From NCBI GenBank assembly GCA_017522915.1, contig JAFWXX010000038.1, forward strand, positions 1-35,036: DNA of 35,036 nucleotides, given 5' to 3'. A model generated the notes under the pieces. The model made no database searches and had not been told where the DNA came from. It saw only the letters and a program-made list of their open reading frames with translations. Shown piece after piece: positions 1,887 to 18,970 of this stretch (the stretch's first letter is position 1; the number at the start of each line of letters is the position of its first letter). Source of the stretch: Bacteroidaceae bacterium. GTDB taxonomy: Bacteria > Bacteroidota > Bacteroidia > Bacteroidales > Bacteroidaceae. The position numbers were made by a program, and so were the translations under genes.

Positions 1887-4316
1887 TCAATTGTTCTTTT
1901 TTATTGTATCGGCAGGGTTTTCCGTTGCAGCTTTCCACGAGCGGAGGGTTACGAGGCTGACGGTTACAGCCAAGACCACGACCAACGCCACGACATAGAT
2001 CCACCAAAGCGATGTAATGCGGTTGGCGAACTGCTCCAACCAGCGTGAGGTAAAGTAGCACGCAACTGGTGCAGCCACCACGAAACAGCCGAGGACAATC
2101 CACACATAGCGCAGGTTGAGCATCTGAATCATCTGTGCGGTTGTTGCACCATACACCTTGCGAACAGCAATCTCCGAGCGGCGGTGCTGCGTCTCGAACA
2201 TCACGATACCGAATACTCCCATCAGTGCGATAACGATTGCCAAAACTGCAAACATACCTATCAAGACCATATCCTTTTTGGTCTGCTTATAGAGGCTCTC
2301 GACCCACTCCTCCAAGAAATAGAGTTCGGGTTCTTCGGACGCCGGCGACAGTTCCTTAGTGAGTTTATTCACATAGTCGGCAAAGGCCTCAACATCGGCA
2401 CCCGCACGCAAACGGATATAGTAGTGGCTCATCGTAGAGTTTGAAGTAACATAGAATGCGTGATACTCATCGTTTTGACTGAGCGAGGTTAGGCGCACAT
2501 CTTTAATCACACCCACATAGGTTAGGAAATCCTCCTTTTGGCCGATAGGAATACCAAGATCGCGGTGCATACGCTGCATCATCACAATCTCATTGCGCTC
2601 GCACGAAGATTCGGTGAACCCCTCGCCCTCGACAACCTCAAAGCCAAAGAAGTCGAGGAAATTCCAACGCACAGGATTGGCACGCACCACATACTCCTGA
2701 CCCTCGTACTCGCGACCCCATCGCTGATTACAATACATAAGGTTTACGGCGGAGGTTGTTACATCTTCGGCATCGGGGTGCTGGCTCAAACGCTCCACTA
2801 CGGTCTCGTAGCGCTTTCTTAAGTCCCACGAAGCAAAGGTTACTACATTCTCACGGTCAAAGCCCAAGTCGTAGTTAATCATATAGCGGTACTGCAAGAA
2901 GAATACGGCAGTTACAATGATAAGAATCATTGCTACAGTAAACTGTGCACCCACCATCACAGAGCGCAGTCTGCGACCCGTTGCCGACTGTGCAAAGCCA
3001 CTTTTAACACCTAACGATGCATTGAAACGAGTGATGTAGAATGCGGGATACAATGCCGCCACAACTGCCAACAACGCCATCAGCACAACCACCATAATAA
3101 ATACTGGGATGTTATCCTTCAAGGCGAGCGAGCAGATTGAATAGTTGGTGATGTAACTATCCTGAATAACAATCATCAGGCAGAGCGTCAAGCCCATTGC
3201 GAGCAACACCAAGCCGATAGTCTCAAAGAGGAAGTTCCAACGCAAACTCCACAGACTTGCACCAAACACTTTGCAGATATTCACCGAACGTATACGAATG
3301 GGAACAAGCGCAAAGAAGAAGTTGATAAAATTAATAAAGGCAATCAACACTATGACAAAGGCAATGCTGCCGAGGATAATCGCTGTTGAGACAGTTCCTG
3401 TTCGGAAGTTATTATTCTGGGTAAAATTACCTCCATAATACATGTCGTCAACAGCCACTAAACGGGTATTGAGCACCTGAGCGCCGCTATCCAACTCCTC
3501 CTGAGCCATCTCCTTATCTTCGGGGTTGTCAGTCATCGCAATCCACTCTTGCACCATACCGAGGAACCACTCTGCATAACGATTCTTGAAGATTTCGATG
3601 TAGGTATCGAGGTCAGCACCCTCACGCAGACGCACAAAATTTGCGTAGTTCCAATTGTTATTATCCGAGGTGCGTACGCCCTCGTCGTTTTGCATAATCT
3701 TCCAATCCTTAAACATCGTATTATCAGGCATATCCTCGTAGATAGCCACAATGGTTTGCTGATGTATAGGTTTGCCATCATCAAAATATTTTCCGCCCTC
3801 AAAGTAAATCACATCACCCGCACCTACGCCCAACTTTTCAGCCTCCGAGCGAGCCATAATAACCGTGTTCGGGTTCTTTAACTGCGAGAAGTCGCCCGCC
3901 AGGCACTCAAAGCCGAAGAATGTGGGAATGTTCGCCGTACCCTGATAGACATAATCATTGAATGGGTCAAAGGTGTATTCGTTGCGCTTGACCCATATTC
4001 GGTTGATACTTGGGTAGGGCGCAATCGAAGCAACCTCCTCCGCATCGGGGAACTGCTCAGCAGCCTCGTAGGCTAACGCGCCAGGAGAGTTGGTGCTCCA
4101 CTCCAATTTACCATCACCACCGCCACCAAAGTCGGGCGAGACTATATAAGTGCGATCAGAGTCTTTGAGTGTACGGTTGTAAGTTACCGTAAACCACACC
4201 TGCGACATTATTATATAGAAAGCCACAAATGCCAGCGCAAGACCCGCAATATTCAACACTGAAGCTATCTTATAACGCTTCAATGTTGTAATAAAATTCT
4301 TAAATGCGATTTTCAT
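1887..4316 (-). CDS. ABC transporter permease, double FtsX module
   Basis: Full-length inner-membrane permease of 809 residues with two MacB_PCD-FtsX modules: helix 1 at about 18-38, a periplasmic domain, three helices in the middle (around IAFVIVLIAFINFINFFFAL), a fifth helix, a second periplasmic domain and a final three-helix block with RRSEIAVRKVYGAT. I chose the ATG at 4314-4316 because it gives the same MKIAFKNFITTLKRYK start as the downstream paralogue and lies two bases after the upstream TGA; a more upstream ATG would overlap the preceding gene by about 200 bases and add a Cys-rich sequence unlike this family. It is likely a partner of the single ATPase at 6921-7601. The substrate cannot be read from the sequence. 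Confidence 0.9.
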   Translation of the reverse strand: MKIAFKNFITTLKRYKIASVLNIAGLALAFVAFYIIMSQVWFTVTYNRTLKDSDRTYIVSPDFGGGGDGKLEWSTNSPGALAYEAAEQFPDAEEVASIAPYPSINRIWVKRNEYTFDPFNDYVYQGTANIPTFFGFECLAGDFSQLKNPNTVIMARSEAEKLGVGAGDVIYFEGGKYFDDGKPIHQQTIVAIYEDMPDNTMFKDWKIMQNDEGVRTSDNNNWNYANFVRLREGADLDTYIEIFKNRYAEWFLGMVQEWIAMTDNPEDKEMAQEELDSGAQVLNTRLVAVDDMYYGGNFTQNNNFRTGTVSTAIILGSIAFVIVLIAFINFINFFFALVPIRIRSVNICKVFGASLWSLRWNFLFETIGLVLLAMGLTLCLMIVIQDSYITNYSICSLALKDNIPVFIMVVVLMALLAVVAALYPAFYITRFNASLGVKSGFAQSATGRRLRSVMVGAQFTVAMILIIVTAVFFLQYRYMINYDLGFDRENVVTFASWDLRKRYETVVERLSQHPDAEDVTTSAVNLMYCNQRWGREYEGQEYVVRANPVRWNFLDFFGFEVVEGEGFTESSCERNEIVMMQRMHRDLGIPIGQKEDFLTYVGVIKDVRLTSLSQNDEYHAFYVTSNSTMSHYYIRLRAGADVEAFADYVNKLTKELSPASEEPELYFLEEWVESLYKQTKKDMVLIGMFAVLAIVIALMGVFGIVMFETQHRRSEIAVRKVYGATTAQMIQMLNLRYVWIVLGCFVVAAPVACYFTSRWLEQFANRITSLWWIYVVALVVVLAVTVSLVTLRSWKAATENPADTIKKNN

Positions 4317-4318
4317 AA

Positions 4319-6640
4319 TCAATTGTTCTTTTTTATCATCTCCACAGGGTTCTCGTTTGCAGCATGCCACGACAGCGACAACTGCACTGCATACACAAAA
4401 GCAATTACCGCCAGTGCACCGACAATATAAATCCATAGAGGCACACTGCAGCGCATCTGCGCAAGTGTCGAAAGCCACTCGCCATTCAACCACACGGCAA
4501 CCAGAACACCGCATAGTGTAGCCGGCAACACTATTCTCAAGAGCCTTGTTCCCAGAATCACAAGAACCTCGGCCGTCGATGCACCGCTCACTTTGCGCAC
4601 TGCAATCTCTTTGCGGCGACGTGCCATCTCACCTTGCAGATAACCGCACAAACCGATGAAAGCTATCAGCAGAACGACAGAGGCAACAACAACCATTCCG
4701 TCACGCATGCGCTTGACATGAGCGAATGCAATATCAATCCAGTCGCTGTAAGGTATAATCTTATACTTGTAGTAGCCATCGTACACCGATGCTATGGCTT
4801 CGTCAAGAGCCTTCACATTCTCATCGTCAATCTCCTTCATCAGAATATTGTAAAGCACCACCACTCTGTATTCCGGAGCCAGATCGCTAAGGTAAGGTAC
4901 TGTATGCAGTACAATAGGCTCTGCCACACCGGTGCTCATCATACGGTAGTCGGCAATGACACCCACAATCTCAAATGGCACCATAGAACTGTCATATATG
5001 ATTTTACCTATGGGAGAGTCACTCCACCCGCGCATCTCGACATATTTCTCGTTTACTATAACCTTATCGGCAGCATCGTCCGGCAAGAAGTTCCGTCCCT
5101 GCACAATACTCATCTGCATCGACGGTATATAGTTCTCGTCAACAATATCCCAACGGCAAGAGAAGAGCAAGTTTCCTCCTTCATCGACACATGGCATTCC
5201 CGAATAGCCCGACAGAGGTGACGAAGACGACATTCCGGCATTCTCGACAAAAGGCAAGCTACGCAGTTTGTCGGCAACCACTCCGGCATCCTTAATCTCG
5301 GTCGATAGCTCAAGAGCCATCAGCCTGTCGAACTTATAGCCGTAATCGCTATTCATAATATAAGAGACCTGTCTGTTGCTAACGAGAAGGAAAATGACAA
5401 CCGCTACAGCCATTGTCACTTGCAGGAAGAGAAGTGACTTCTTCCACCATACCCTGTTGTCTCCGCCACGGCGGAAAGCATAGTCTATGCTTACAGCCGA
5501 GAATATTGCAGACGGAGCAATTCCGGCCACAGCGAAAGCTGCCACACATACAGCCATAGGAATCCATATACGCTCCGGTGCAAACAAATCACTTACCCGA
5601 TAGCCGAACAGGTCGTATATTTGGCCGTGCATGCTTGTTATTATAACAACAGCAATAAACAGAGAAGCAAGCAGAATCAGCAACGTCTCGGACAGCAACA
5701 TGCCGAATATTGTTGAACGTGAAGCACCGTTACACTTCATGGTTGCAATAGTACGGCTGCGCTCGGCGAGCGAAGATATTGTCAGCAGCACATAATTGAG
5801 ACAGGCTACGATGAGAGCGGCCAAAGCTATAGCCGAATATATCATCTGCATCTGCCTTACATCATTAGCGACAAATATTGTAGAAGCAAACGGAACAAAA
5901 TGAAATGTCATCTGCCACTCCTTGCAATGCTCTTCAATGCCGTGCTTCCTTATAAACTCAGGCATTGCAGCCTCTACTTCTGCAATATCTGCACCCTCGC
6001 ATAGTTTTATAAACGTCGTATAGCTATCCTGACCGGTCCAAATCTCATCATCACTGTCATAGGGCAAATGCTCAAGAATATCAAAATCACCTATAGACTG
6101 GTTCACCGGCGGTGTTTCAAAGACACCGGCAACAACCAAGGCTCCTAATTTCTTGCCCAGCGGCTCCTCATCACCGAAATGCTTTTTGGCAAGACGCTCC
6201 GAAATCATCACTTCGTTTCCGGCAGCACCTTCGGCACTTAGTATCCTGTGAGGATCGCCGCTGATAACCCCGAAGTCAAGGACATCGAAAAGAGTGCTAT
6301 TTGTCAACAATGCCTTGGCTGTCATAACATTCTCCGTATCGCCATAAAGCTTTTCTACACCAATGAAATGTACAGCAGACTCGACCTGGGGTATATCAGT
6401 GACAATATTAGGAGCAAACGGCTTTACCAGCTTCTCAGACATTCCGAACTGAGGAGATTTCACCCATACCTGATAGACCCTCTCCTTGTTGGGGAAGAAG
6501 TTATTGAACGAGAGATTAAGTCCCACGTACGAGAACACGAGAAGCGCGACTGCAACACCCAATGACAAGGAAAGAACCCTTGCCAAAGAATTGCCGCGTC
6601 TCTTCAACAAGTAGCGGAATGAATAATTGAATATTTGCAT
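4319..6640 (-). CDS. ABC transporter permease, double FtsX module (divergent subclade)
   Basis: A 773-residue permease starting MQIFNYSFRYLLKRRGN. It has the same two-module plan as its neighbours: an N-terminal helix, a MacB_PCD-like periplasmic domain, a central three-helix FtsX block (around ALIVACLNYVLLTISS), then a second module ending in RRKEIAVRKVSGAS and three helices. It is shorter and more divergent than the other four permeases and lacks their N-terminal LLKRYK..S.LNI.G.A.AF pattern, so it may play a different role in a heteromeric complex (inference). Its C-terminus ENPVEMIKKNN resembles that of the next gene (ENPADTIKKNN). It is preceded by a 280-bp gap to the ATPase gene. Confidence 0.9.
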   Translation of the reverse strand: MQIFNYSFRYLLKRRGNSLARVLSLSLGVAVALLVFSYVGLNLSFNNFFPNKERVYQVWVKSPQFGMSEKLVKPFAPNIVTDIPQVESAVHFIGVEKLYGDTENVMTAKALLTNSTLFDVLDFGVISGDPHRILSAEGAAGNEVMISERLAKKHFGDEEPLGKKLGALVVAGVFETPPVNQSIGDFDILEHLPYDSDDEIWTGQDSYTTFIKLCEGADIAEVEAAMPEFIRKHGIEEHCKEWQMTFHFVPFASTIFVANDVRQMQMIYSAIALAALIVACLNYVLLTISSLAERSRTIATMKCNGASRSTIFGMLLSETLLILLASLFIAVVIITSMHGQIYDLFGYRVSDLFAPERIWIPMAVCVAAFAVAGIAPSAIFSAVSIDYAFRRGGDNRVWWKKSLLFLQVTMAVAVVIFLLVSNRQVSYIMNSDYGYKFDRLMALELSTEIKDAGVVADKLRSLPFVENAGMSSSSPLSGYSGMPCVDEGGNLLFSCRWDIVDENYIPSMQMSIVQGRNFLPDDAADKVIVNEKYVEMRGWSDSPIGKIIYDSSMVPFEIVGVIADYRMMSTGVAEPIVLHTVPYLSDLAPEYRVVVLYNILMKEIDDENVKALDEAIASVYDGYYKYKIIPYSDWIDIAFAHVKRMRDGMVVVASVVLLIAFIGLCGYLQGEMARRRKEIAVRKVSGASTAEVLVILGTRLLRIVLPATLCGVLVAVWLNGEWLSTLAQMRCSVPLWIYIVGALAVIAFVYAVQLSLSWHAANENPVEMIKKNN

Positions 6641-6759
6641 AAGAAGCTGTTTAAATTTCAGTTCAATTGTTTAAGACGTCTCGCATACACTCGGCATATT
6701 TTGTCCCGACGGAGCACTAATACTTTCATCTTTGCTCTTTTATCTTTGCTCTTTGTTCT

Positions 6760-6909
6760 GCAGGAACAAGCGTAACGCACTATTTGCCCGATAACCGTAA
6801 AATCATTGTAGCGAGGCAAAGACAAGGCTTGCGAAGTTACGAGGAGCACAGTTTACTAAATTGTAAATGAGCACCGCAGGAACAAGCGTAACGCAGTATT
6901 TGCCCGATA
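6760..6909. repeat. 34-bp direct repeat pair inside the operon gap
   Basis: Two 34-bp copies (6760-6793 and 6876-6909), differing at one base, share the core GGAACAAGCGTAACGCA and TATTTGCCCGATA. They sit in the 280-bp untranslated gap between the ATPase and the next permease. The same gap holds two copies of TTTGCTCTTT near 6731-6755 and a small inverted repeat TTTAC/GTAAA near 6852-6867. I see no credible gene here. The copies may be a dispersed intergenic repeat or affect mRNA folding within the operon. Confidence 0.7.
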
Positions 6910-6920
6910 CAATGGTTTTA

Positions 6921-7601
6921 TTACAATTTGTTCGCCACATCCGTAACTACCTGACCATCGAACAGACATATGGTACGCGACGCATACTGCGCATCGTGTT
7001 GGGAGTGGGTAACCATGATAATGGTAGTGCCTTCACGGTTTAGTTCCTGAAGAAGAAGCATAACTTCCTGTCCGTTCTTTGAATCGAGGTTACCGGTCGG
7101 CTCATCGGCAAGCACAAGCTTGGGATTGGATATTACGGCACGCGCAATTGCCACACGCTGCTGCTGACCGCCGGATAGCTGTTGCGGAAAGTGACCGGCA
7201 CGGTGGGAGATGTTCATGCGCTCAAGAATCTCGTTGACACGTTTCTTGCGCTCAGAAGCCTTCACACCCATATATACAAGCGGAAGCTCGACATTCTCGA
7301 ATACAGTCATTTCATCAATAAGATTGAACGACTGGAACACAAAGCCTAAATTGCCTTTACGGAACTGGGTACGCTCTCTTTCACGCAAGTTGCCTACCTC
7401 TTTGTCAAGAAGGGTATATTTTCCGCCTGTCGGGTTATCAAGCAGACCCAGGATGTTGAGAAGCGTTGACTTTCCGCAACCTGAGGGGCCCATAACAGCA
7501 ACGAACTCACCCTCTTTCACTTCAAAAGAAACACCGTTAAGAGCAATTGTCTCAATCTCTTCTGTAAAGAAACTCTTCTTTAAATTTTCTACTTTAAGCA
7601 T
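6921..7601 (-). CDS. ABC transporter ATP-binding protein, LolD/MacB type
   Basis: Cytoplasmic ATPase of 226 residues that should power the MacB-like permeases around it. Visible motifs are Walker A GPSGCGKS (38-45), Q-loop Gln90, signature LSGGQ (142-146), Walker B LVLADEP (162-168), D-loop NLD (171-173) and the H-loop His199. Length and sequence are typical of the LolD/MacB/FtsE group. It is the only ATPase in an operon with five permeases, so it is probably shared. There are gaps of 110 bp upstream and 280 bp downstream, unlike the tight junctions between permease genes. Confidence 0.95.
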   Translation of the reverse strand: MLKVENLKKSFFTEEIETIALNGVSFEVKEGEFVAVMGPSGCGKSTLLNILGLLDNPTGGKYTLLDKEVGNLRERERTQFRKGNLGFVFQSFNLIDEMTVFENVELPLVYMGVKASERKKRVNEILERMNISHRAGHFPQQLSGGQQQRVAIARAVISNPKLVLADEPTGNLDSKNGQEVMLLLQELNREGTTIIMVTHSQHDAQYASRTICLFDGQVVTDVANKL

Positions 7602-7711
7602 AATCGTATTTTTTAGTTATTAATATTAATTGTCTATTATCTTTTAATCTTACATTTTACACAATATGAATATATGCAGTCCGTCCAAAGGCAAGAATAT
7701 CTTTATTATAC

Positions 7712-10153
7712 CTACCTCGAAATAGCATCGACGGGATTCTCTTCCGCAGCACTCCACGAGCGTAGCGAAACGGTAACAATGGTAATTACAAGGATAACTC
7801 CTACCGCTAGGACATACACCCACCAAGACATTGACGTGCGATAGACATACTGCTGCATCCAACTATTGATGATGTAGTAGCTCACAGGTATTGCCACAGC
7901 CGAACAGAGAACCACAATGTATAGGTATTTAAGGTTGAAGAACGCAAGTATCTCACCTACTGATGCCCCATGAACTCGACGTATGCCTATCTCGCGGCGG
8001 CGATACTGTGTTTCGAACAGTACAAGACCGAACACTCCAATAATTGAAATAATAATCGACAGGAACGAGAAGAGTGTGACAAGGGTCGAGAGTTTATCTT
8101 CTTTCTGATAGATAAATTCAATCTCATCATCAAAGAATCTTACATTGATATTCTCCGGCACAACATCGGGAGCAAAATCAACAATCGTTTGGTGTATGTA
8201 CTCTCTTGCTTTCGTAATATCGGCACCCGCAACTGTACGTATATAAGCCCTACGAGGCAAGTCCCAGCCATATTGGCCAAAGACAACAAAGACATACGGT
8301 TTTATGGCGTTTTGGGCCGATTGGAAATCAAAATCCTCGCAAATGCCGACTACTTGTGTTTGCATGTTGCTGATATGACCTTGTATTTTACTCTCAGAAG
8401 AAATATTCATCTCTTTAGCAGCCTTCTCGTTGAATATCAATGCACCGGTCACCACCTCATTATCGGAGAGTATAAAGTCACGGCCTTCGACAATGTCAAT
8501 CCCCATTACCTGCAAGAAGTTCCACGATACCGGATACACTCTGAAGGTGACGTGTTGCCCATCTTCGGTCTTACGTGACCACTGTCTATCACCACCAGAA
8601 ATGAACTCTCCCTGTCCCCAAGCAACATCTATAATTTGAGGATTCTGTTTGAGTTTATCCTCCAAGGCATTGCGTTTAGTATAGTCCATTGTAATACCAT
8701 CCTCTTTTGTCCAGCCATAAGTTGCATCGTATGGTATTTCTACGGTCAAAATGTTTTCTTTGTCGAAGCCCATATCCCTTGTGAGCATATATTGATGCTG
8801 ACGATAGATAAAGAGCGAGCAGATAATCAATGTAATGGAAATGAAATATTGCACACCTACAAGTGCATATCGCAAGATACGTCCGTACTTTGATGCAGAG
8901 AAGTCACCTTTGATAACAAATGCAGGCGAGAATCCGGTAATATACCACGCGGGATATAGTGACACTAATACACCAAAAAGAATCAGGCCCAGAACGATAG
9001 CACCAGCCAAAGACCAATTCTCATTGATTGCAACTGAAGTCGAGATATACTCTTTAAGCGGTGTATCGGCAAAGATCACCACAATAACTGCTGCACCAAA
9101 AAGTGATACAAGAATCAGCCCCATTGTCTCAAAAAGAAAATTAAGACGTAGTTTTGCTGTTGGCGCACCGAAAACCTTATAATTATTGACAGCACGGATT
9201 CTGCTCGGAATCAAAGCAAAGAAGAAGTTTATAAAGTTGATAAACGAAATAACCAGAATCAATACGGCAATTGCAATGAGTGTATATGTTGTCGTACGAC
9301 TGCCTGATATTCCAATATTATGAGTATCCTCTGCAAAGAAAAGTTCATTGATAGGCATTAGGCGCGGTTTGATACGCGAAATCTGAACCTCAGTTTCCTG
9401 TTCATCCAGTCCTCTCTTTTGACAATCATCAATAACGTACTGATACATTTTCGCCTCGGCCTCCTCGCGCGAAGCACCTTCTCCCAGCAGTACATAGTAC
9501 GGAGTACCCCAATTACCCTCTTCTTCGGGTTTTGCTTTTGCCATATAGCAAAAACCATCAGACATGGCAATTGTAGATGGGCGTGGAAAGTCTTTGTAGA
9601 TACCTACAACTGTAAATAGCAGTTCACTGTCGGCATTCCGGCCATAATGCAACTTGTCTCCCACTGAGATATTACATCCATTGGCAACACTCTCTGTAAT
9701 GATAATGTCATATTCGGTATGGAATGACGAAGCACCGCCTGCAATAAACTCAAAAGGGAAAACCTCCAGCACCTCTGGTTCTGCCGCTCCGAATTTAATG
9801 ACAAAATTCTCAATAGAACCATTACGTTTGACAGATACATCTCCAGAGTAGTACATTGCATTCTGTAACTCGTAAATTGAACCACCTGCCTCAATCTCAG
9901 GACAAACGGAACACATTTCATCCGGTATCTGACGGTTCCAGCTGAAATCCCAACTGCCGTCACCAATCCAAGACGGATGCTCCAAACGATATATACGCTC
10001 CGAGTTCTTGATTACGCGGTTATATGACAGGTCAAACTTCACCTGCACTGCGATAAGATAGACCGCCGCAAAGGCCACCGCCATACCTATTATGTTCAAT
10101 ACAGAAGAGGTAATATACCTTTTCAGTAAAATTATGAAGTTCCTTAGATACAT
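7712..10153 (-). CDS. ABC transporter permease, double FtsX module
   Basis: Inner-membrane permease of 813 residues starting MYLRNFIILLKRYITSS. The order is an N-terminal helix (about 17-38), a first periplasmic MacB_PCD-like domain, three helices starting about residue 290 (TYTLIAIAVLILVISFINF), another helix, a second periplasmic domain and a terminal FtsX block with RRREIGIRRVHGAS. It is a close paralogue of the next upstream gene: both share the start LLKRY..SSVLNI.GMAVAFAAVYLI and the YRRREIGIRRVHGAS motif, which points to local duplication. Only 12 bases separate the two. It probably forms a heterodimer or alternative exporter with its paralogue. Confidence 0.92.
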   Translation of the reverse strand: MYLRNFIILLKRYITSSVLNIIGMAVAFAAVYLIAVQVKFDLSYNRVIKNSERIYRLEHPSWIGDGSWDFSWNRQIPDEMCSVCPEIEAGGSIYELQNAMYYSGDVSVKRNGSIENFVIKFGAAEPEVLEVFPFEFIAGGASSFHTEYDIIITESVANGCNISVGDKLHYGRNADSELLFTVVGIYKDFPRPSTIAMSDGFCYMAKAKPEEEGNWGTPYYVLLGEGASREEAEAKMYQYVIDDCQKRGLDEQETEVQISRIKPRLMPINELFFAEDTHNIGISGSRTTTYTLIAIAVLILVISFINFINFFFALIPSRIRAVNNYKVFGAPTAKLRLNFLFETMGLILVSLFGAAVIVVIFADTPLKEYISTSVAINENWSLAGAIVLGLILFGVLVSLYPAWYITGFSPAFVIKGDFSASKYGRILRYALVGVQYFISITLIICSLFIYRQHQYMLTRDMGFDKENILTVEIPYDATYGWTKEDGITMDYTKRNALEDKLKQNPQIIDVAWGQGEFISGGDRQWSRKTEDGQHVTFRVYPVSWNFLQVMGIDIVEGRDFILSDNEVVTGALIFNEKAAKEMNISSESKIQGHISNMQTQVVGICEDFDFQSAQNAIKPYVFVVFGQYGWDLPRRAYIRTVAGADITKAREYIHQTIVDFAPDVVPENINVRFFDDEIEFIYQKEDKLSTLVTLFSFLSIIISIIGVFGLVLFETQYRRREIGIRRVHGASVGEILAFFNLKYLYIVVLCSAVAIPVSYYIINSWMQQYVYRTSMSWWVYVLAVGVILVITIVTVSLRSWSAAEENPVDAISR

Positions 10154-10165
10154 GATTCTATTTTA

Positions 10166-12595
10166 TCATTTGTTTATTGCATCAACCGGATTGTCGTTTG
10201 CAGCCTTGTATGAACATGCAGTAACTGTAAGCACCGTTATCAAGGCAACAAGGAAAATTGCAAGCAGATATATCCACAAGGCCATAGGTGCCTGATAGGT
10301 AAACTGCTCTGTCCAGTACTTTATTATCACAAACCCCAGCAACACCGCCACTAAAGAACACCCGGCCAGAACCTGAAGATATTTGCTGTTGAACATTGCC
10401 AATATGCTGCTTACCGATGCACCATGCACACGGCGTATTCCAATCTCGCGCCGGCGATACTGTGTCTCAAAATGCACAAGGCCAAAGACTCCTATTATAG
10501 AAATCAATATCGAAAGGACCGTGAAGAGGATAATAAGTGAAGCCAGTTTGCCCTCTTTTTTGTAATTGCTCTCAAGTTCGGAGTCGAAGAATGAGATATC
10601 GTAACTATCGGCCGGCGCATCGGGCTCATACTCTGCAATTGTATTGGCTATGAACTCACGCACAGCAGTGACATCGGCATCCGGTGTTGTGCGCACATAC
10701 ATTTTGTTCATTACACGCCACGGATACTTGCCGAAGATGTAGAATGCGAAAGGCTCAATATTGTACTGCATGGGGCGGAAATTGAAATCCTTGCATATAC
10801 CTACCACCTCGGTACCAGAACGGTGACCCGCAAAGACATCACCCACCTTCAGGCCAAGCTTGCGTGCAGCGTCCTCGTTGAATATATATGCACCGTTTGC
10901 ATTGCATTCATCGCTGCTGAGGAAATCGCGCCCGTCAACTATATCAATCCCCATAAACCGCAGGAAATCCCATGAAACAGGATATACCTGGAAGTATATG
11001 CTCTGGCCGTTGAAGTCGCGTCCCCATTGCATTCTCGACAAGTTTATGAATGAACCGTCGGCAAAAGTGACATCCTCTATTTGGGGATTCTTCATCAGGC
11101 TCCCGGCAAATGCGTCGCGCCTGCCGTAAGACAATCCATTCTCCGGGTCGTACGACTCGAATACCGTTCCGCCAGGCAGATGGTTTACTACAAGAAGATT
11201 GTTCTTGTTGAAGCCCATGTCATGTGTGAGCATATAATCGTATTGCCTGTAGATAGAAAGCGAACAGATGACAAGCGTAATCGAGATGATATACTGTACT
11301 GCCACAAGTGTGTAGCGCAATCGTCTGCCCGGTGCAGTGGCCTGGAAACCGCCCATTACCATTGCCGGTGAGAAACGGGTAATGTACCACGCAGGGTATA
11401 TGCTCACGACAATCCCTGTAACAAGAGCGACAACGGAGACAGCAACTGCAACATCTATATTGTCACCAAAGGCCAATGACGTTGATATATGCTCAGTAAG
11501 CGATGTCTCCATGAACACGCCTGTAATCACAGCCGCTCCGCAAAGAGCGACAAGCACAAGCCCCATGGTCTCAAAGACGAAGTTCAGGCGCAGAGTGAAA
11601 GATGATGCTCCGAATACCTTGCAGGTATTTATGCTCTTTATGCGTACAGGAATAAGTGCAAAGAAGAAGTTTACGAAGTTTATGAGAGCAATGGCCATAA
11701 TGAGCACAGCAATGGCAAAGAGCGTGTATGTAGTGGCCTTGTTGCCGGTTGCATGTGCAGAACCGCTGACATCTGTTGAAAAATAGAGTTCAGTGAGAGG
11801 ATTCAGGCGCGGGTTGGCACGTTTGAGAAATTCGGCAATGTCTTCTTCACTTGCATTCAGGGATTGAAGCCATCCTATGAGATTGTTTCTCAGTTTCTCG
11901 CATACAGCATCGGGTGATGCCCCATTTCTCAATTTCAGGTAATAAGGGTCGTTCCAGTTGTTAGGATTGTGTTCCTCCTGTGGGGGCATGCCTCCCCAAC
12001 CGTCACATGCGTCAAGAATGCTGGGCGATGCAGGATCCTTGCATATTGCAATTACCGTTGCGGTATTCTCCTCGCTTGCCTCACGGCCATAACATATTAC
12101 ATCACCTGCCGAAATGTTGAATCTCCTTGCAGCAGACTCCTTCAGCACCAAAGTGGAATGGTCGAGGAAGTTGTCGAGCGAACCCTCGATTATCTCAAGC
12201 CCGAAGATATCCAATCCTTCACGTTCAGCCTCACACAAGTCGAAATATAGATACTCTATTCCCTTGTCACTCTTTCTTGAGTAATCGGAATTGATGTTGT
12301 AGTGTCCCGTTGGCCATATTGTAGCACTCTTCTCTATTTCAGGCACACCCTTGCAAAGGTCGTCGGGCAACTGACGTGCCCATGTGGTGCTCCAGTACCC
12401 CTCTTCGGCCCAGTGGGGATATTCAAGACGGTATATGTTGCCAGCATTGGGGATACCCTTGTTATATGAGAGGTCAAAATTTACCTGAACCATTATAAGA
12501 TACACCGCTGCAAAAGCCACTGCCATACCGAATATGTTCAGTACAGAAGATATAGTGTACCTTTTAAGCAGTGTTATAAAATTCTTTATATACAT
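10166..12595 (-). CDS. ABC transporter permease, double FtsX module
   Basis: An 809-residue permease starting MYIKNFITLLKRYTISS, with the same eight-helix, two-periplasmic-domain plan as the gene after it. The central helices begin near TYTLFAIAVLIMAIALINF and the last module carries YRRREIGIRRVHGASV. It directly follows the adaptor gene after an 81-bp gap in which I see no clear promoter. Because it is nearest to the adaptor and TolC genes, it may be the founding permease of the expanded set (inference). Function is export or mechanotransmission of an unknown envelope substrate. Confidence 0.92.
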   Translation of the reverse strand: MYIKNFITLLKRYTISSVLNIFGMAVAFAAVYLIMVQVNFDLSYNKGIPNAGNIYRLEYPHWAEEGYWSTTWARQLPDDLCKGVPEIEKSATIWPTGHYNINSDYSRKSDKGIEYLYFDLCEAEREGLDIFGLEIIEGSLDNFLDHSTLVLKESAARRFNISAGDVICYGREASEENTATVIAICKDPASPSILDACDGWGGMPPQEEHNPNNWNDPYYLKLRNGASPDAVCEKLRNNLIGWLQSLNASEEDIAEFLKRANPRLNPLTELYFSTDVSGSAHATGNKATTYTLFAIAVLIMAIALINFVNFFFALIPVRIKSINTCKVFGASSFTLRLNFVFETMGLVLVALCGAAVITGVFMETSLTEHISTSLAFGDNIDVAVAVSVVALVTGIVVSIYPAWYITRFSPAMVMGGFQATAPGRRLRYTLVAVQYIISITLVICSLSIYRQYDYMLTHDMGFNKNNLLVVNHLPGGTVFESYDPENGLSYGRRDAFAGSLMKNPQIEDVTFADGSFINLSRMQWGRDFNGQSIYFQVYPVSWDFLRFMGIDIVDGRDFLSSDECNANGAYIFNEDAARKLGLKVGDVFAGHRSGTEVVGICKDFNFRPMQYNIEPFAFYIFGKYPWRVMNKMYVRTTPDADVTAVREFIANTIAEYEPDAPADSYDISFFDSELESNYKKEGKLASLIILFTVLSILISIIGVFGLVHFETQYRRREIGIRRVHGASVSSILAMFNSKYLQVLAGCSLVAVLLGFVIIKYWTEQFTYQAPMALWIYLLAIFLVALITVLTVTACSYKAANDNPVDAINK

Positions 12596-15537: not shown

Positions 15538-16770
15538 GTGGTACTAAACTATATATGGATTGCATTCTTCCTCATTGCATTTGCAATTGCACTGGGGAAG
15601 CTAATATTCGCAGGAGACACAACGGTCTTTCCTGCGATAATGGACTCTACCTTCGCACAGGCAAAGAATGCCTTTGAAATTTCGTTGGGACTGACAGGAG
15701 TGCTCTCACTTTGGATGGGAATAATGAAGATTGGCGAGAAAGGCGGCCTTGTGGCTGCGCTTGCAAGAGTGCTGAGCCCGGTATTATGCAGAATCTTCCC
15801 CGATGTACCCAAAGGACACCCGGCTATGGGAACAATGTTCATGAACTTCTCGGCCAACATGCTGGGGCTTGACAACGCTGCAACTCCAATGGGACTTAAG
15901 GCCATGCAGGAGCTGCAGGAGCTGAACAAGGAGAAGGAGACGGCAAGCAACCCCATGATAATGTTCCTTGTACTCAATACATCGGGGCTTACGCTCATTC
16001 CCGTATCGGTACTGCTCTATCGCGCCGAAATGGGAGCTGCCAACCCTACCGACGTGTTCATACCCATACTGCTTGCCACTACAGCAGCAACAATAACAGG
16101 ACTTATAGCAACAAGCATATACCAGCGCATAAACCTCTTCAACCGTACAATGATGCTTTTCCTATTTGCCATCTGCGCCTTAGTCACAGGAGGTACATGG
16201 GGAATGATGCAGCTTTCGCAGGTAGAGATTGAGGTGGTTTCGACATCGCTTGCCAATATAATACTGTTCTCGGTGATAATACTCTTCATCGCAGCCGGCA
16301 TGCGTGCAAGGATTAATGTATATGAAGCATTCATAGAGGGAGCAAAGGATGGATTCACAACAGCTGTACGCATCATCCCCTACCTTGTTGCCATACTTGT
16401 AGCCATTGGGGTGTTCCGCGCATCGGGAGGCATGGACGTGATAATGGACGGTGTGGCATGGTGCGCAAATGCAGCCGGCATAGGTGATGATTTCGTGGGT
16501 GCGTTGCCTACTGCCATAATGAAGCCGCTGAGCGGAAGCGGAGCAAGAGGCATGATGATTGATGCTATGAGCACATACGGTGCCGACTCCTTTGCCGGGC
16601 GCATGGCATGCCTGTTCCAGGGAGCTACCGACACTACATTCTATATATTGGCGGTATATTTCGGAAGTGTAGGAATACGCAAGACACGCCACGCGGTAAC
16701 ATGCGGGCTGCTTGCCGACCTTGCCGGAATAATTGCAGCCATAGCAATTGCATATATTTTCTTCGGATGA
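15538..16770 (+). CDS. Nucleoside-recognition (Gate) membrane protein, SpmA/SpmB-like fusion
   Basis: Inner-membrane protein of 410 residues with two Gate-domain halves, like spore maturation proteins A and B joined in one chain. The first half contains NFSANMLGLDNAATPMGLKA, the typical SpmA signature; the second half holds KDGFTTAVRIIPYLVAILVAIGVFRASGG and PTAIMKPLSGSGARGMM, typical of SpmB. There are about ten hydrophobic segments. The start is GTG at 15538; the nearby ATG at 15555 is in another frame. In non-sporulating Bacteroidetes such fusions are widespread, and a role as a nucleoside or small-molecule transporter is assumed, not shown. It is followed after 102 bases by ybeY. Confidence 0.82.
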   Translation: MVLNYIWIAFFLIAFAIALGKLIFAGDTTVFPAIMDSTFAQAKNAFEISLGLTGVLSLWMGIMKIGEKGGLVAALARVLSPVLCRIFPDVPKGHPAMGTMFMNFSANMLGLDNAATPMGLKAMQELQELNKEKETASNPMIMFLVLNTSGLTLIPVSVLLYRAEMGAANPTDVFIPILLATTAATITGLIATSIYQRINLFNRTMMLFLFAICALVTGGTWGMMQLSQVEIEVVSTSLANIILFSVIILFIAAGMRARINVYEAFIEGAKDGFTTAVRIIPYLVAILVAIGVFRASGGMDVIMDGVAWCANAAGIGDDFVGALPTAIMKPLSGSGARGMMIDAMSTYGADSFAGRMACLFQGATDTTFYILAVYFGSVGIRKTRHAVTCGLLADLAGIIAAIAIAYIFFG

Positions 16771-16872
16771 TTTTATAACAGATTGTCATATCGACCGACA
16801 GGGAGATATCTGAAATATTATTCCGGATTTCTCGTCGATACGTTCTGCCGAATGACAAAAAACACTTTTCTT

Positions 16873-17286
16873 ATGATAAGCTACCAGACCGAGGGTACCA
16901 GGATGCCCGCAATAAAAAGACGTGAGACAACAGCATGGATTAAAGCCGTTGCTGCTACATACGGCAAGAAGGTTGGCGACATTGCCTACATATTCTGCAA
17001 CGACGAAAAGATTCTTGAGGTGAACCGCGAGTACCTACAGCACGACTATTACACCGATATAATAACCTTCGACTACTGCGAGGGCGACACGATAAGCGGT
17101 GACCTCTTCATATCATTGGACACTGTACGCAGCAACAGCGAGATGGTAGGTGCCACATACGAGCAGGAGCTGTACCGCGTGATTATCCACGGCATACTGC
17201 ACCTATGCGGAATAAATGACAAAGGCGAAGGCGAAAGAGAAATAATGGAAGCCGCTGAAAACAAGGCTTTGGCAATGAGAAAATAA
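16873..17286 (+). CDS. ybeY: Endoribonuclease YbeY (rRNA maturation)
   Basis: YbeY is a metal-dependent single-strand endoribonuclease needed for 16S rRNA 3'-end maturation and ribosome quality control. I chose the ATG at 16873 (137 residues, MISYQTEG...), because residues encoded upstream of it (from 16783) do not resemble the family. The metal motif HGILHLCGIND has His106, His110 and Asp116; the third position is His in most bacteria, but I recall Asp in Bacteroidetes homologues, so this is probably lineage-typical. The final 21 residues (from Lys117) are copied three more times downstream. The native stop is at 17284-17286. Confidence 0.9.
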   Translation: MISYQTEGTRMPAIKRRETTAWIKAVAATYGKKVGDIAYIFCNDEKILEVNREYLQHDYYTDIITFDYCEGDTISGDLFISLDTVRSNSEMVGATYEQELYRVIIHGILHLCGINDKGEGEREIMEAAENKALAMRK

Positions 17287-17292
17287 AAACAA

Positions 17293-17381
17293 GCCTTAGA
17301 GAACACAGACAGCAATAGTCACGCGAAGCAACGCAGAAGGTGGTGCCGCGTGGGGTGCGAAAAGGCTGTGTTCTCAAAGGC
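17293..17381 (+). repeat. Hairpin element copy A in the ybeY array
   Basis: The left arm GCCTTAGAGAACACAG (17293-17308) pairs with the right arm CTGTGTTCTCAAAGGC (17366-17381): 15 pairs and one A-A mismatch. A second inner stem CACGCG / CGCGTG closes the middle. The outer AAGGC of the right arm is also the first part of the downstream ybeY tail, so the element and the copied gene end are structurally joined. An in-frame GTG at 17343 opens a 31-codon reading frame running through the tail to 17438. Confidence 0.75.
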
Positions 17382-17456
17382 GAAGGAGAGCGCGAAATTA
17401 TGGAAGATTGTGAGAACAAGGCTCTTGCAATGAGATAATAATTACATAAAGACAAT

Positions 17457-17543
17457 CCTTAGAGAACACAGACAGCAATAGTCACGCGATGCAGCGCAGA
17501 ATGTGATGCCGTGTGGGGTGCGAAAAGGCTGTGTTCTCAAAGG
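17457..17543 (+). repeat. Hairpin element copy B in the ybeY array
   Basis: The arms are CCTTAGAGAACACAG (17457-17471) and CTGTGTTCTCAAAGG (17529-17543). The inner stem is CACGCG with CGTGTG, where one G-C of copies A and C becomes a G-T (G-U) pair, so pairing survives the substitution. The bases just before this copy differ from those before A and C. ATG at 17506 opens a 32-codon frame ending at 17604 that joins element and tail. Confidence 0.75.
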
Positions 17544-17610
17544 TGAAGGAGAGCGCGAAATTATGGAAGCTTGCGAGAACAAGGCTTTGGAGGTGAGGAA
17601 ATAAAAACAA

Positions 17611-17699
17611 GCCTTAGAGAACACAGACAGCAATAGTCACGCGAAGCAGCGCAGAATGTGATGCCGCGTGGGGTGCGAAAAGGCTGTGTTCTCAAGGGT
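17611..17699 (+). repeat. Hairpin element copy C in the ybeY array
   Basis: The left arm is identical to copy A (17611-17626); the right arm is 17684-17699, where AAGGGT pairs with GCCTT through two G-T wobbles. The inner CACGCG / CGCGTG stem is intact. ATG at 17661 opens a 35-codon frame ending at 17768 with a different extreme C-terminus (MRYISD). Confidence 0.75.
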
Positions 17700-17896
17700 A
17701 AAGGCGAAAGAGAAATCATGGAAGATTGTGAGAACAAAGCTCTTGCAATGAGATACATAAGTGACTAAAAAGCGGATTGCTGTATTATGCAATGTTCCCA
17801 AAATCCTCATTTACTTAAATAAACTGCGGCATTCAGGAACTTTGCAAGCCTTGTACTCAACTTTTGTTAACTTCCGGAAATTTACAAACAAAACAT

Positions 17897-18970
17897 TCAG
17901 ATTTTAAGCCCGTCGAGCATTTCGGCGAAAAGCTTTATACCCTCGCGTATCTCGCTTATCCTTATATATTCGTTTGCTGTGTGCGAGCGTGAGGAGTCGC
18001 CGGGGCCCATCTTGAGTGTGGGAATGCTCAGCAACGCCTGATTTGACAGTGTGGGCGAGCCGTATGGCTTGCGGCCAAGCTCCACGGCACGTTTTACAAG
18101 AGGGTGTTCGGCAGATATTGACGAAGAGTTCAAACGCGTAGAACGCGCCTTGACTTCGCTGCTCACATGGCTTCCGATTATCTCAAGAAGCTCGCTGTTG
18201 GAATAGCACTCGTTGCTGCGTATGTCAACAACATAACTGCAACTGTCGGGGATGACATTATGCTGCTTCCCGGCATTTACCTGGGTAACAGTCATCTTTA
18301 CATCGCCAAGCAGAGGAGAACTCTCAGGATATTTGTAGTTTCTGAACCAATCGATATCCTCTATAGCCTTGTATATTGCATTTACACCTTCGTTGCGTGC
18401 CGCATGGCCTGCTACGCCTTTTGCAGTACAGTCGAGAACCATAAGGCCCTTTTCGGCTATCGCCGGGTGCATTCCTGTCGGCTCGCCTATTATGGCACAG
18501 TTTATAGGGGGAAGCAAGGGTATTACGGCCTCGATACCGTTCTTTCCGGAGACTTCCTCCTCGGCCGAAGCAAGGAATATTGTATTATAGCTTTGCGGAT
18601 TCTGACATATCTGATAGAAGACCTGAAGCATTGTAACCAATGATGCACCGTCGTCATTGCTGCCGAGACCGTATATGATGTCGCCATCGACAATAGGGGT
18701 GAATGGATGCTTGCTCCAGCCTGCAACAGGCTTTACAGTGTCGATATGTGCATCGAGCAGCAATGTAGGGCGCGTAGCATCGTACCCCGGCGCAATGCAC
18801 CATATATTGTTAAGGTGACGGTGCATGTCGAAACGCACCGGTGCACCCCTCTCGATGAAATGCTGCAACTTGTCGGTTGCATCACTCTCCTCACGGCTAA
18901 TCGACGGGGTACTGACAAGAACCTTCAACAACTCAACAGCTCTGTTTACATTCGACTCGGTTATAATCAT
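17897..18970 (-). CDS. M20-family metallo-deacylase, probable arginine-pathway N-acyl-citrulline/ornithine deacylase
   Basis: Cytoplasmic zinc amidohydrolase of 357 residues. The M20 ligands are visible: LLLDAHIDTV (His/Asp of the first site), GLGSNDDGAS (bridging Asp), SAEEEVSG (catalytic Glu and ligand), IIGEPT (Glu ligand) and the late His in SRSHTANEY. The inserted dimerisation domain lies near the middle (from about CTAKGVAGHAAR). Length and motifs fit the ArgE/DapE branch; in Bacteroides arginine synthesis is known to use N-succinyl intermediates, so an ArgE-like desuccinylase is my best guess. DapE or peptidase activity cannot be excluded. It is monocistronic, with its own -7 box. Confidence 0.78.
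   Translation of the reverse strand: MIITESNVNRAVELLKVLVSTPSISREESDATDKLQHFIERGAPVRFDMHRHLNNIWCIAPGYDATRPTLLLDAHIDTVKPVAGWSKHPFTPIVDGDIIYGLGSNDDGASLVTMLQVFYQICQNPQSYNTIFLASAEEEVSGKNGIEAVIPLLPPINCAIIGEPTGMHPAIAEKGLMVLDCTAKGVAGHAARNEGVNAIYKAIEDIDWFRNYKYPESSPLLGDVKMTVTQVNAGKQHNVIPDSCSYVVDIRSNECYSNSELLEIIGSHVSSEVKARSTRLNSSSISAEHPLVKRAVELGRKPYGSPTLSNQALLSIPTLKMGPGDSSRSHTANEYIRISEIREGIKLFAEMLDGLKI

What the first reader, a model, noticed from the sequence alone, without database searches (positions are those of the whole stretch)
17221..17768. ybeY is followed by three more copies of its own 3' end, each linked to a structured hairpin element
Seen directly: native tail, hairpin A, tail, hairpin B, tail, hairpin C, tail. 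The right stem arm of each hairpin runs into the first codons of the copied tail (AAAGG), so hairpin and gene end behave as one unit. Stem pairing is largely retained between copies through wobble changes. This suggests a small element that inserts at a gene's 3' end and supplies a replacement end, so that ybeY remains intact after each round. I know of no described element of about 150 bp that does this.
Basis: partly seen in the sequence, partly recalled or inferred. Interest (0 to 1): 0.85.

Follow-up and report, generated by a model that had tools for sequence, protein, structure and literature searches.

The report
Hairpins that hand genes new ends
In a group of uncultured gut bacteria, many from cattle, sheep and buffalo, small DNA hairpins sit just behind genes and are often followed by spare copies of those genes' last codons, which suggests a tiny mobile element that enters a gene's end without breaking it.

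Summary
In detail: behind ybeY stand three ~83-nt hairpins (94-98% identical) and three further copies of the last ~20 codons (73-85% identical). It is not a local oddity. A covariance model finds the hairpin in 44 of 44 genomes of the genus (up to 88 per genome) and in 2 of 142 other genomes sampled from the family. Of 281 hairpins tested, 117 have right flanks resembling sequence upstream (4.5% in mismatched controls), half of these starting at the first base after the terminal CAA. Many are gene tails: ybeY, ribH, gdhA and others. Copies differ mainly at third codon positions, so both were once coding. In one sister comparison the displaced copy, not the coding one, matches the sister's native tail in protein. 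The hairpin's 5' foot is complementary to the gene at the junction (0 of 2000 permutations), and in clean empty sites that target pre-exists. I read this as a non-autonomous element that inserts by base pairing at gene ends and brings or duplicates the tail. It resembles an IS608 right end, but 39 of 44 genomes lack a detectable Y1 transposase. Enzyme, unit boundary and direction of copying are not shown.

The parts
16852..17286 (+). ybeY (name taken from the finding and recalled; no family search run); ORF with intact current 3' end; start codon inferred
   Evidence: ORF 16783-17286; relatives; start by reading
17223..17286 (+). native (coding) tail from the junction ACAA|AGG to the stop
17291..17382 (+). 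hairpin A; element end TCAA at 17374-17377
   Evidence: 94.5 bits
17378..17438 (+). tail copy 1 (KGEGEREIMEDCENKALAMR stop)
17454..17545 (+). hairpin B; element end CAA at 17540
   Evidence: 86.4 bits
17541..17604 (+). tail copy 2 (KGEGEREIMEACENKALEVRK stop)
17609..17700 (+). hairpin C; element end CAA at 17695
   Evidence: 92.6 bits
17696..17768 (+). tail copy 3 with ancestral downstream context (ends RYISD stop; G043 native ends RHVSD stop)
17293..17297 (+). 5' foot GCCTT of hairpin A, complementary to AAGGC at the ybeY junction

Best explanation
A genus-specific family of small non-autonomous mobile hairpin elements. Each ends in (T/C)CAA. Its 5' foot is complementary to a short target that follows an AA in the host. 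Insertion puts the hairpin, in the gene's sense, just behind a stop codon, and leaves the gene's last codons on both sides: the left copy finishes the gene, the right copy is the displaced end. I think most likely that the moving unit is [tail + hairpin + TCAA], cut at AA|target on both sides by the same base pairing and pasted at AA|target of a homologous gene (single-strand peel-and-paste as in IS608). Shown: family, structure, orientation, tail copies, foot-target complementarity, empty sites. Inferred: that the unit carries the tail, that pairing chooses the target, and the single-strand route. The enzyme is unknown.
For: 44 of 44 genus genomes have model hits; in a family sample 11 of 151, 9 of them this genus. 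Structure: 34 predicted pairs, 23 with changes on both sides in at least one of 25 sequences. Element ends TCAA in 243 and CCAA in 30 of 290 distinct hairpins. Right flank resembles upstream sequence in 117 of 281 versus 63 of 1406 mismatched controls; match begins at base 0 after CAA in 59 of 117; by genome G000 20 of 62, G022 38 of 82, G004 26 of 63, others (partly chosen as tandem) 33 of 74. Of 187 arrays, upstream ORF on the same strand in 129, opposite 38, undetermined 20; hairpin 0-20 bp after the stop in 40 of 129 versus 1 of 38. Mismatches between coding tail and first copy: codon positions 1/2/3 = 14/12/64. Foot-target longest pairing 4.02 versus 2.73 permuted, 0 of 2000, 17 gene cases. 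Foot versus bases after CAA in 110 distinct hairpins without tail copy: 2.93 versus 2.59, 0 of 300 shuffles. Sisters G022/G041: of 23 arrays with both flanks, 9 have no hairpin in G041; L190 and L220 are clean and L238 nearly clean insertions at a pre-existing AATGACA, complementary to the foot (T)TGTTAT with one wobble. L222, 19 codons: displaced copy versus sister's native tail 9 synonymous, 0 nonsynonymous differences; coding copy 8 and 4.
Against: No candidate enzyme common to the genus: Y1 transposase in 5 of 44, none in G000; reverse transcriptase domain in 18 of 44; other enzyme families were not searched. Association of hairpin type with its left tail at ribH is not significant (Mantel r 0.12, 201 of 2000 permutations as high); with the right tail r 0.02, 742 of 2000. 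Several ribH copies start after an A-rich stretch at variable points. Several arrays end in a truncated 5' half-hairpin, which the model does not predict. Foot-target pairing could simply be outer stem; it is weak in two of 17 cases (L226, L090: run 2), and the cases were collected by hand. L222 rests on 10 versus 13 differences in 60 nt, the next codon goes the other way (displaced Leu, coding copy and sister Phe), and the gene is only about 80% identical between the species. Donors of the foreign-looking ybeY tails were not found: best match of the native tail 0.82. The genomes used are mostly fragmented drafts.
Confidence: 0.45

Rival explanations
1. The hairpin alone is mobile and makes a long, variable target-site duplication that begins at its 3' end and runs past the stop codon; later recombination with other species swaps tails.
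For: G040 ribH copy of 56 bp with 2 mismatches; ribH copies resume at varying points after TGYGC-like bases plus an A-rich stretch; G022 ribH has, relative to G041, a hairpin flanked by an 11-bp direct repeat with six A's at its 3' end, though the same A-rich junction also exists elsewhere in the G041 array, so this may be a rearrangement.
Against: Differences between copies concentrate at third positions, 64 of 90 (p = 4e-5 against one half); L222 displaced copy is closer in protein to the sister; hairpins at ybeY are far more alike than the tails.
Confidence: 0.3
2. No dedicated mobility: hairpin arrays behind genes spread and rearrange by homologous and microhomology recombination with DNA of related species.
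For: Mosaic tails at ybeY and different hairpin order at ribH in the close pair G022/G041; no common enzyme among the two families searched.
Against: Clean intergenic insertions into empty sites with fixed ends; exact start after CAA at many unrelated genes; strong orientation bias.
Confidence: 0.2
3. Simple tandem duplication by slippage at ybeY.
For: Tandem units of similar length.
Against: The last tail, not the last hairpin, joins ancestral downstream sequence; tails diverged more than hairpins; same pattern at other genes.
Confidence: 0.04

Closest known systems
IS200/IS605 family ends (IS608; PMC5934647, passages seen)
   Same: Hairpin with right cleavage site TCAA; guide just 5' of the hairpin base; targeting by base pairing between element and target.
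   Different: No Y1 transposase detected in 39 of 44 genomes including G000; here the complementarity reaches bases 3' of the TCAA; a copy of the host gene's tail often follows; one hairpin, not two ends.
REP/BIME with RAYT (TnpA-REP; PMC8266576, passages seen)
   Same: Dispersed intergenic palindromes in high copy, often in arrays.
   Different: Longer (~90 nt versus 20-50), no constant tetranucleotide such as GTAG before the hairpin in the alignment, no Y1 enzyme in most genomes; gene tails copied.
MITEs and Rickettsia palindromic elements (review PMC10969869, passages seen)
   Same: Small non-autonomous palindromic elements; RPEs insert inside genes and keep them open.
   Different: Those add codons within the gene; here the gene end is replaced or duplicated and the foot matches the target gene.
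MIRU of mycobacteria (recalled; no paper on it seen)
   Same: Small repeats in tandem at stop codons of genes.
   Different: As recalled, no hairpin with a gene-matched foot and no copied gene tail.
Islands and phages integrating at gene 3' ends (recalled)
   Same: The incoming attachment site restores the gene end and displaces the old one; tandem accretion.
   Different: Those are kilobases long with an integrase; here about 150 bp and no gene.

Membership tests
IS200/IS605-type element | Y1 (HUH) transposase PF01797 available in the genome | tested here: not met
   0 hits in G000, 5 of 44 genus genomes; MAGs incomplete
IS200/IS605-type element | Subterminal hairpin, right end TCAA | tested here: met
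   243 of 290 TCAA, 30 CCAA; right site TCAA of IS608
IS200/IS605-type element | Guide 5' of hairpin pairs with the cleavage/target tetranucleotide | tested here: inconclusive
   Foot pairs with target bases 3' of the cut; not the same geometry as IS608
REP/RAYT | 20-50 nt palindrome preceded by conserved tetranucleotide (most often GTAG) | tested here: not met
   No constant tetranucleotide before the hairpin in 25 aligned copies; length ~90
MITE | Short, no ORF, terminal inverted repeats, dispersed | tested here: met
MITE | Short fixed-length target-site duplication and a parent transposon | tested here: not met
   Direct repeats of variable length; no parent found, search limited to two enzyme families
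Known RNA family (Rfam 15) | Match to a family model | tested here: not met
   No hit in window 16600-18400; in 10 loci 5 hits, none on a hairpin
Retroelement | Reverse transcriptase in host | tested here: inconclusive
   PF00078 in 18 of 44; none in hairpin-rich G041, G004, G009

The most novel reading that the evidence does not exclude
A new class of mobile element: a gene-free ~90-nt hairpin whose 5' foot is a readable address. It homes between related species to the same gene end, carries that gene's last codons as cargo, and displaces the old end, so an essential gene (ribH, ybeY) is re-tailed at each round and never broken.
Probability: 0.35. Interest if true: 0.92.

Novelty: new variant of a known kind. 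Interest (0 to 1): 0.83.

Why it matters
It would be a very small natural system in which a DNA or RNA hairpin seems to choose its target by pairing and avoids harm by restoring the target gene's end. It would also be a natural source of C-terminal variation and of gene-end transfer between species, and the displaced tails keep a record of past ends. It makes the question of how non-autonomous hairpins pick sites testable, because address and target can be read side by side at hundreds of loci.

Tried and rejected
Phage vehicle: a core pattern gave 3 viral contigs; none confirmed by the model. RAYT/IS200 enzyme and reverse transcriptase: not universal. Known RNA: no hit on a hairpin. Module linkage at ribH (hairpin with left tail versus right tail): not significant either way. 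Slippage at ybeY: rejected by N+1 tails. In notes I wrote 'at least 17 of 30' ribH loci and a 20-codon comparison; the counted figures are 15 of 30 with E at most 1e-6 plus one weak, and 19 codons. In one search the printed codon positions of the gene-body comparison are in the wrong frame and are not used. Literature searches: (no paper held enough terms); as far as the listed titles and abstract starts show, none describes an element that re-tails genes. Subscription journals are mostly not held.

Full report
1. The observation. Behind ybeY (stop at 17286) the window holds three hairpins and three more copies of the gene's last codons. The hairpins differ at 2-5 of 83 positions; the tails, over 60 nt, are 73-85% identical, and the differences fall mostly at third codon positions. 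Each hairpin ends in TCAA, and the copied tail starts at the very next base. The tails are mosaic: by eye, their 5' halves pair up as native with copy 3 and copy 1 with copy 2, their 3' halves as native with copy 2 and copy 1 with copy 3. The last tail is followed by sequence shared with the hairpin-free ybeY of G043.

2. A family. DNA search of the own genome gave 28 matches at E up to 10. An alignment of 25 copies folds into one hairpin of 34 pairs, 23 of which have changes on both sides in at least one sequence. The model built from it hits 44 of 44 genomes of the genus at E up to 1e-4: from 1 to over 80 per genome; G000 68 (E up to 1e-3), G022 88 and G004 83. In a sample of 151 genomes of the family, 11 have hits at 1e-6: 9 of this genus and 2 weaker ones in one other genus (strict filters). 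The closest named relatives by ybeY are MAGs of Bacteroidaceae/Bacteroidales, many from ruminant gut. Rfam has no match on the hairpins.

3. Copied tails at other genes. From four model searches (297 hits) 290 distinct hairpins were kept: 65 of G000, 84 of G022, 64 of G004, 77 of others. The first three are covered densely; the others were taken from best hits and partly because they looked tandem, which may inflate their share. For 281 with enough flank, the 80 bases after CAA were aligned to 260 bases upstream, hairpins masked: score at least 24 in 117, against 63 of 1406 pairings of different loci; the match starts at base 0 in 59 of the 117. Per genome: 20 of 62, 38 of 82, 26 of 63, 33 of 74; among single hairpins 39 of 122. 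The upstream match is not always a gene; some are spacers or simple repeats. Examples read in full (gene names are mine from the translations, no family search was run): gdhA in G022, ribH in several species, a 362-aa ORF in G000 (66-nt copy, 4 differences in its 49 coding bases, all third position), genes whose products end in NGKKVLVK-like tails (G004, G022), WGDLWN (G022) and WGNLWK (G000) tails, a repeat-protein-like gene in G032, and yebC in G004.

4. Position and orientation. In 187 arrays (122 single, 65 with 2-5 hairpins) the upstream ORF lies on the hairpin's strand in 129, on the other in 38, undetermined in 20. The hairpin starts 0-20 bp after the stop in 40 of 129 against 1 of 38. 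ORFs were called crudely (at least 90 codons).

5. Zero, one, many. Of 23 ybeY ends printed (30 loci held; 41 matches in 40 of 44 genomes), 21 have no unit, G027 has one and G000 three. Of 80 named ybeY loci scanned with the model, one (L274) has the hairpin at ybeY (a partial hit in L281 lies at the far end of the locus). For ribH, 43 of 44 genomes have the gene; of the 30 loci held, 15 have hairpins at E at most 1e-6 and one more a weak hit. Of 29 hairpins listed, 27 are followed by TG and 19 by TG[CT]GC, as in the gene after GA[AG]; other loci are empty or hold remnants.

6. The copies were coding. In 20 first-copy pairs (genes of at least 120 aa with the stop within 70 bp; 13 have a coding part), mismatches by codon position 1/2/3 are 14/12/64, synonymous codons 53, nonsynonymous 20; one pair (L251) gives 23 of the 90 mismatches. 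Third-position excess is significant even against one half (p = 4e-5), my rough expectation if only the proximal copy had been under selection. Not all copies look so: many ribH copies have internal losses.

7. Sister comparison. G022 and G041 are mostly 92-99% alike at the flanks. With 1.89 Mb of G041 in hand, 23 of 58 G022 arrays have both flanks; 14 hold a hairpin in G041, 9 do not. L190 and L220 are clean insertions and L238 nearly so (its right flank differs over about 20 bases): the empty site holds AATGACA, the inserted stretch ends in GAATGACA, and the foot TTGTTAT is complementary to ATGACAA with one wobble (in L220 six of the seven bases). In L243 the G041 gene ends GAG TAA; in G022 it ends GAA TGA, and a TGATTTTTGC stretch like that at L113 and L108 leads into the hairpin, so the element seems to supply the stop; the bases behind the hairpin no longer align well. 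In L222, over 19 codons, the copy behind the hairpin differs from G041's native tail in 9, all synonymous, while the coding copy differs in 12, of which 4 change the residue (10 versus 13 of 60 bases): the displaced copy looks like the lineage's own end. The next codon goes the other way (Leu in the displaced copy, Phe in the other two), and that gene is only about 80% identical between the two species, so this one case is not final. The other four empty cases (L188, L237, L241, L245) are rearranged or unclear.

8. The foot. For 17 hand-collected gene cases, the longest Watson-Crick run between the hairpin's foot and the gene's own sequence at the junction averages 4.02 against 2.73 (sd 0.18) when genes are permuted, 0 of 2000. 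Some hairpins of one array (L004) were included although they have no tail copy. Over 200 distinct hairpins, foot against the bases after CAA: 2.84 against 2.52; for 110 without tail copy 2.93 against 2.59; 0 of 300 shuffles each. The effect is small per element but general. It fits a guide, and it also fits a stem that simply extends outward.

9. Mechanism. IS608 has the same order of parts: guide, hairpin, TCAA, with target choice by base pairing (PMC5934647, passages). I therefore favour single-strand cut and paste at AA|target on both sides of [tail + hairpin], which would restore the gene end at every insertion. Against it: no Y1 enzyme detected in 39 of 44 genomes, pairing on the other side of the cut, no significant hairpin-tail linkage at ribH, the A-rich starts and half-hairpins. 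A long variable target duplication is the main rival; it explains the ribH cases better and the foreign-looking tails worse.

10. Known or new. It resembles MITEs, REPs and IS608 ends, but fails the enzyme test for the latter two in most genomes, and none of the papers listed in my searches (one search listed none) showed, by title and abstract start, elements that copy or replace a gene's tail. I saw passages of three papers only. MIRU and gene-end integration are recalled analogies.

Noticed in passing
L241:1328-1467 and L126:546-728: Hairpins whose terminal loop holds an insert of another palindromic repeat. Further hits of about 140 nt in G004 (L197, L264, L265, L266) suggest the same by length only.
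   Followed up: no
L115, L117-L119, L128: Spacers between hairpins made of heptamer-like repeats (AAAGATG, GAAAGCT, AAAACTG) directly after the element's CAA.
   Followed up: no
Array ends in L005, L089, L112, L178, L203, L205: These arrays end with a truncated 5' half-hairpin; in L112, L178 and L203 an inverted repeat that looks like a terminator follows.
   Followed up: partly
L361-L380 (ribH): After several ribH hairpins TGYGC is followed by a short A-rich stretch before the tail copy resumes at a variable point.
   Followed up: partly
L190, L220, L238 flanks: Target AATGACA lies, by eye, at the end of a second dispersed intergenic repeat.
   Followed up: no
L178:1226-1405: Rfam Bacteroidales-1 (suggested 6S RNA), 119 bits, next to the G000 array.
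   Followed up: no
G027 C4 and C19: Two contigs each carry the same ybeY with its one unit: strain mixture or assembly duplication.
   Followed up: no
window 1887-12595: Four paralogous permease-like ORFs (773-875 aa) around one ABC ATPase-like ORF (6921-7601) on the minus strand (by eye).
   Followed up: no
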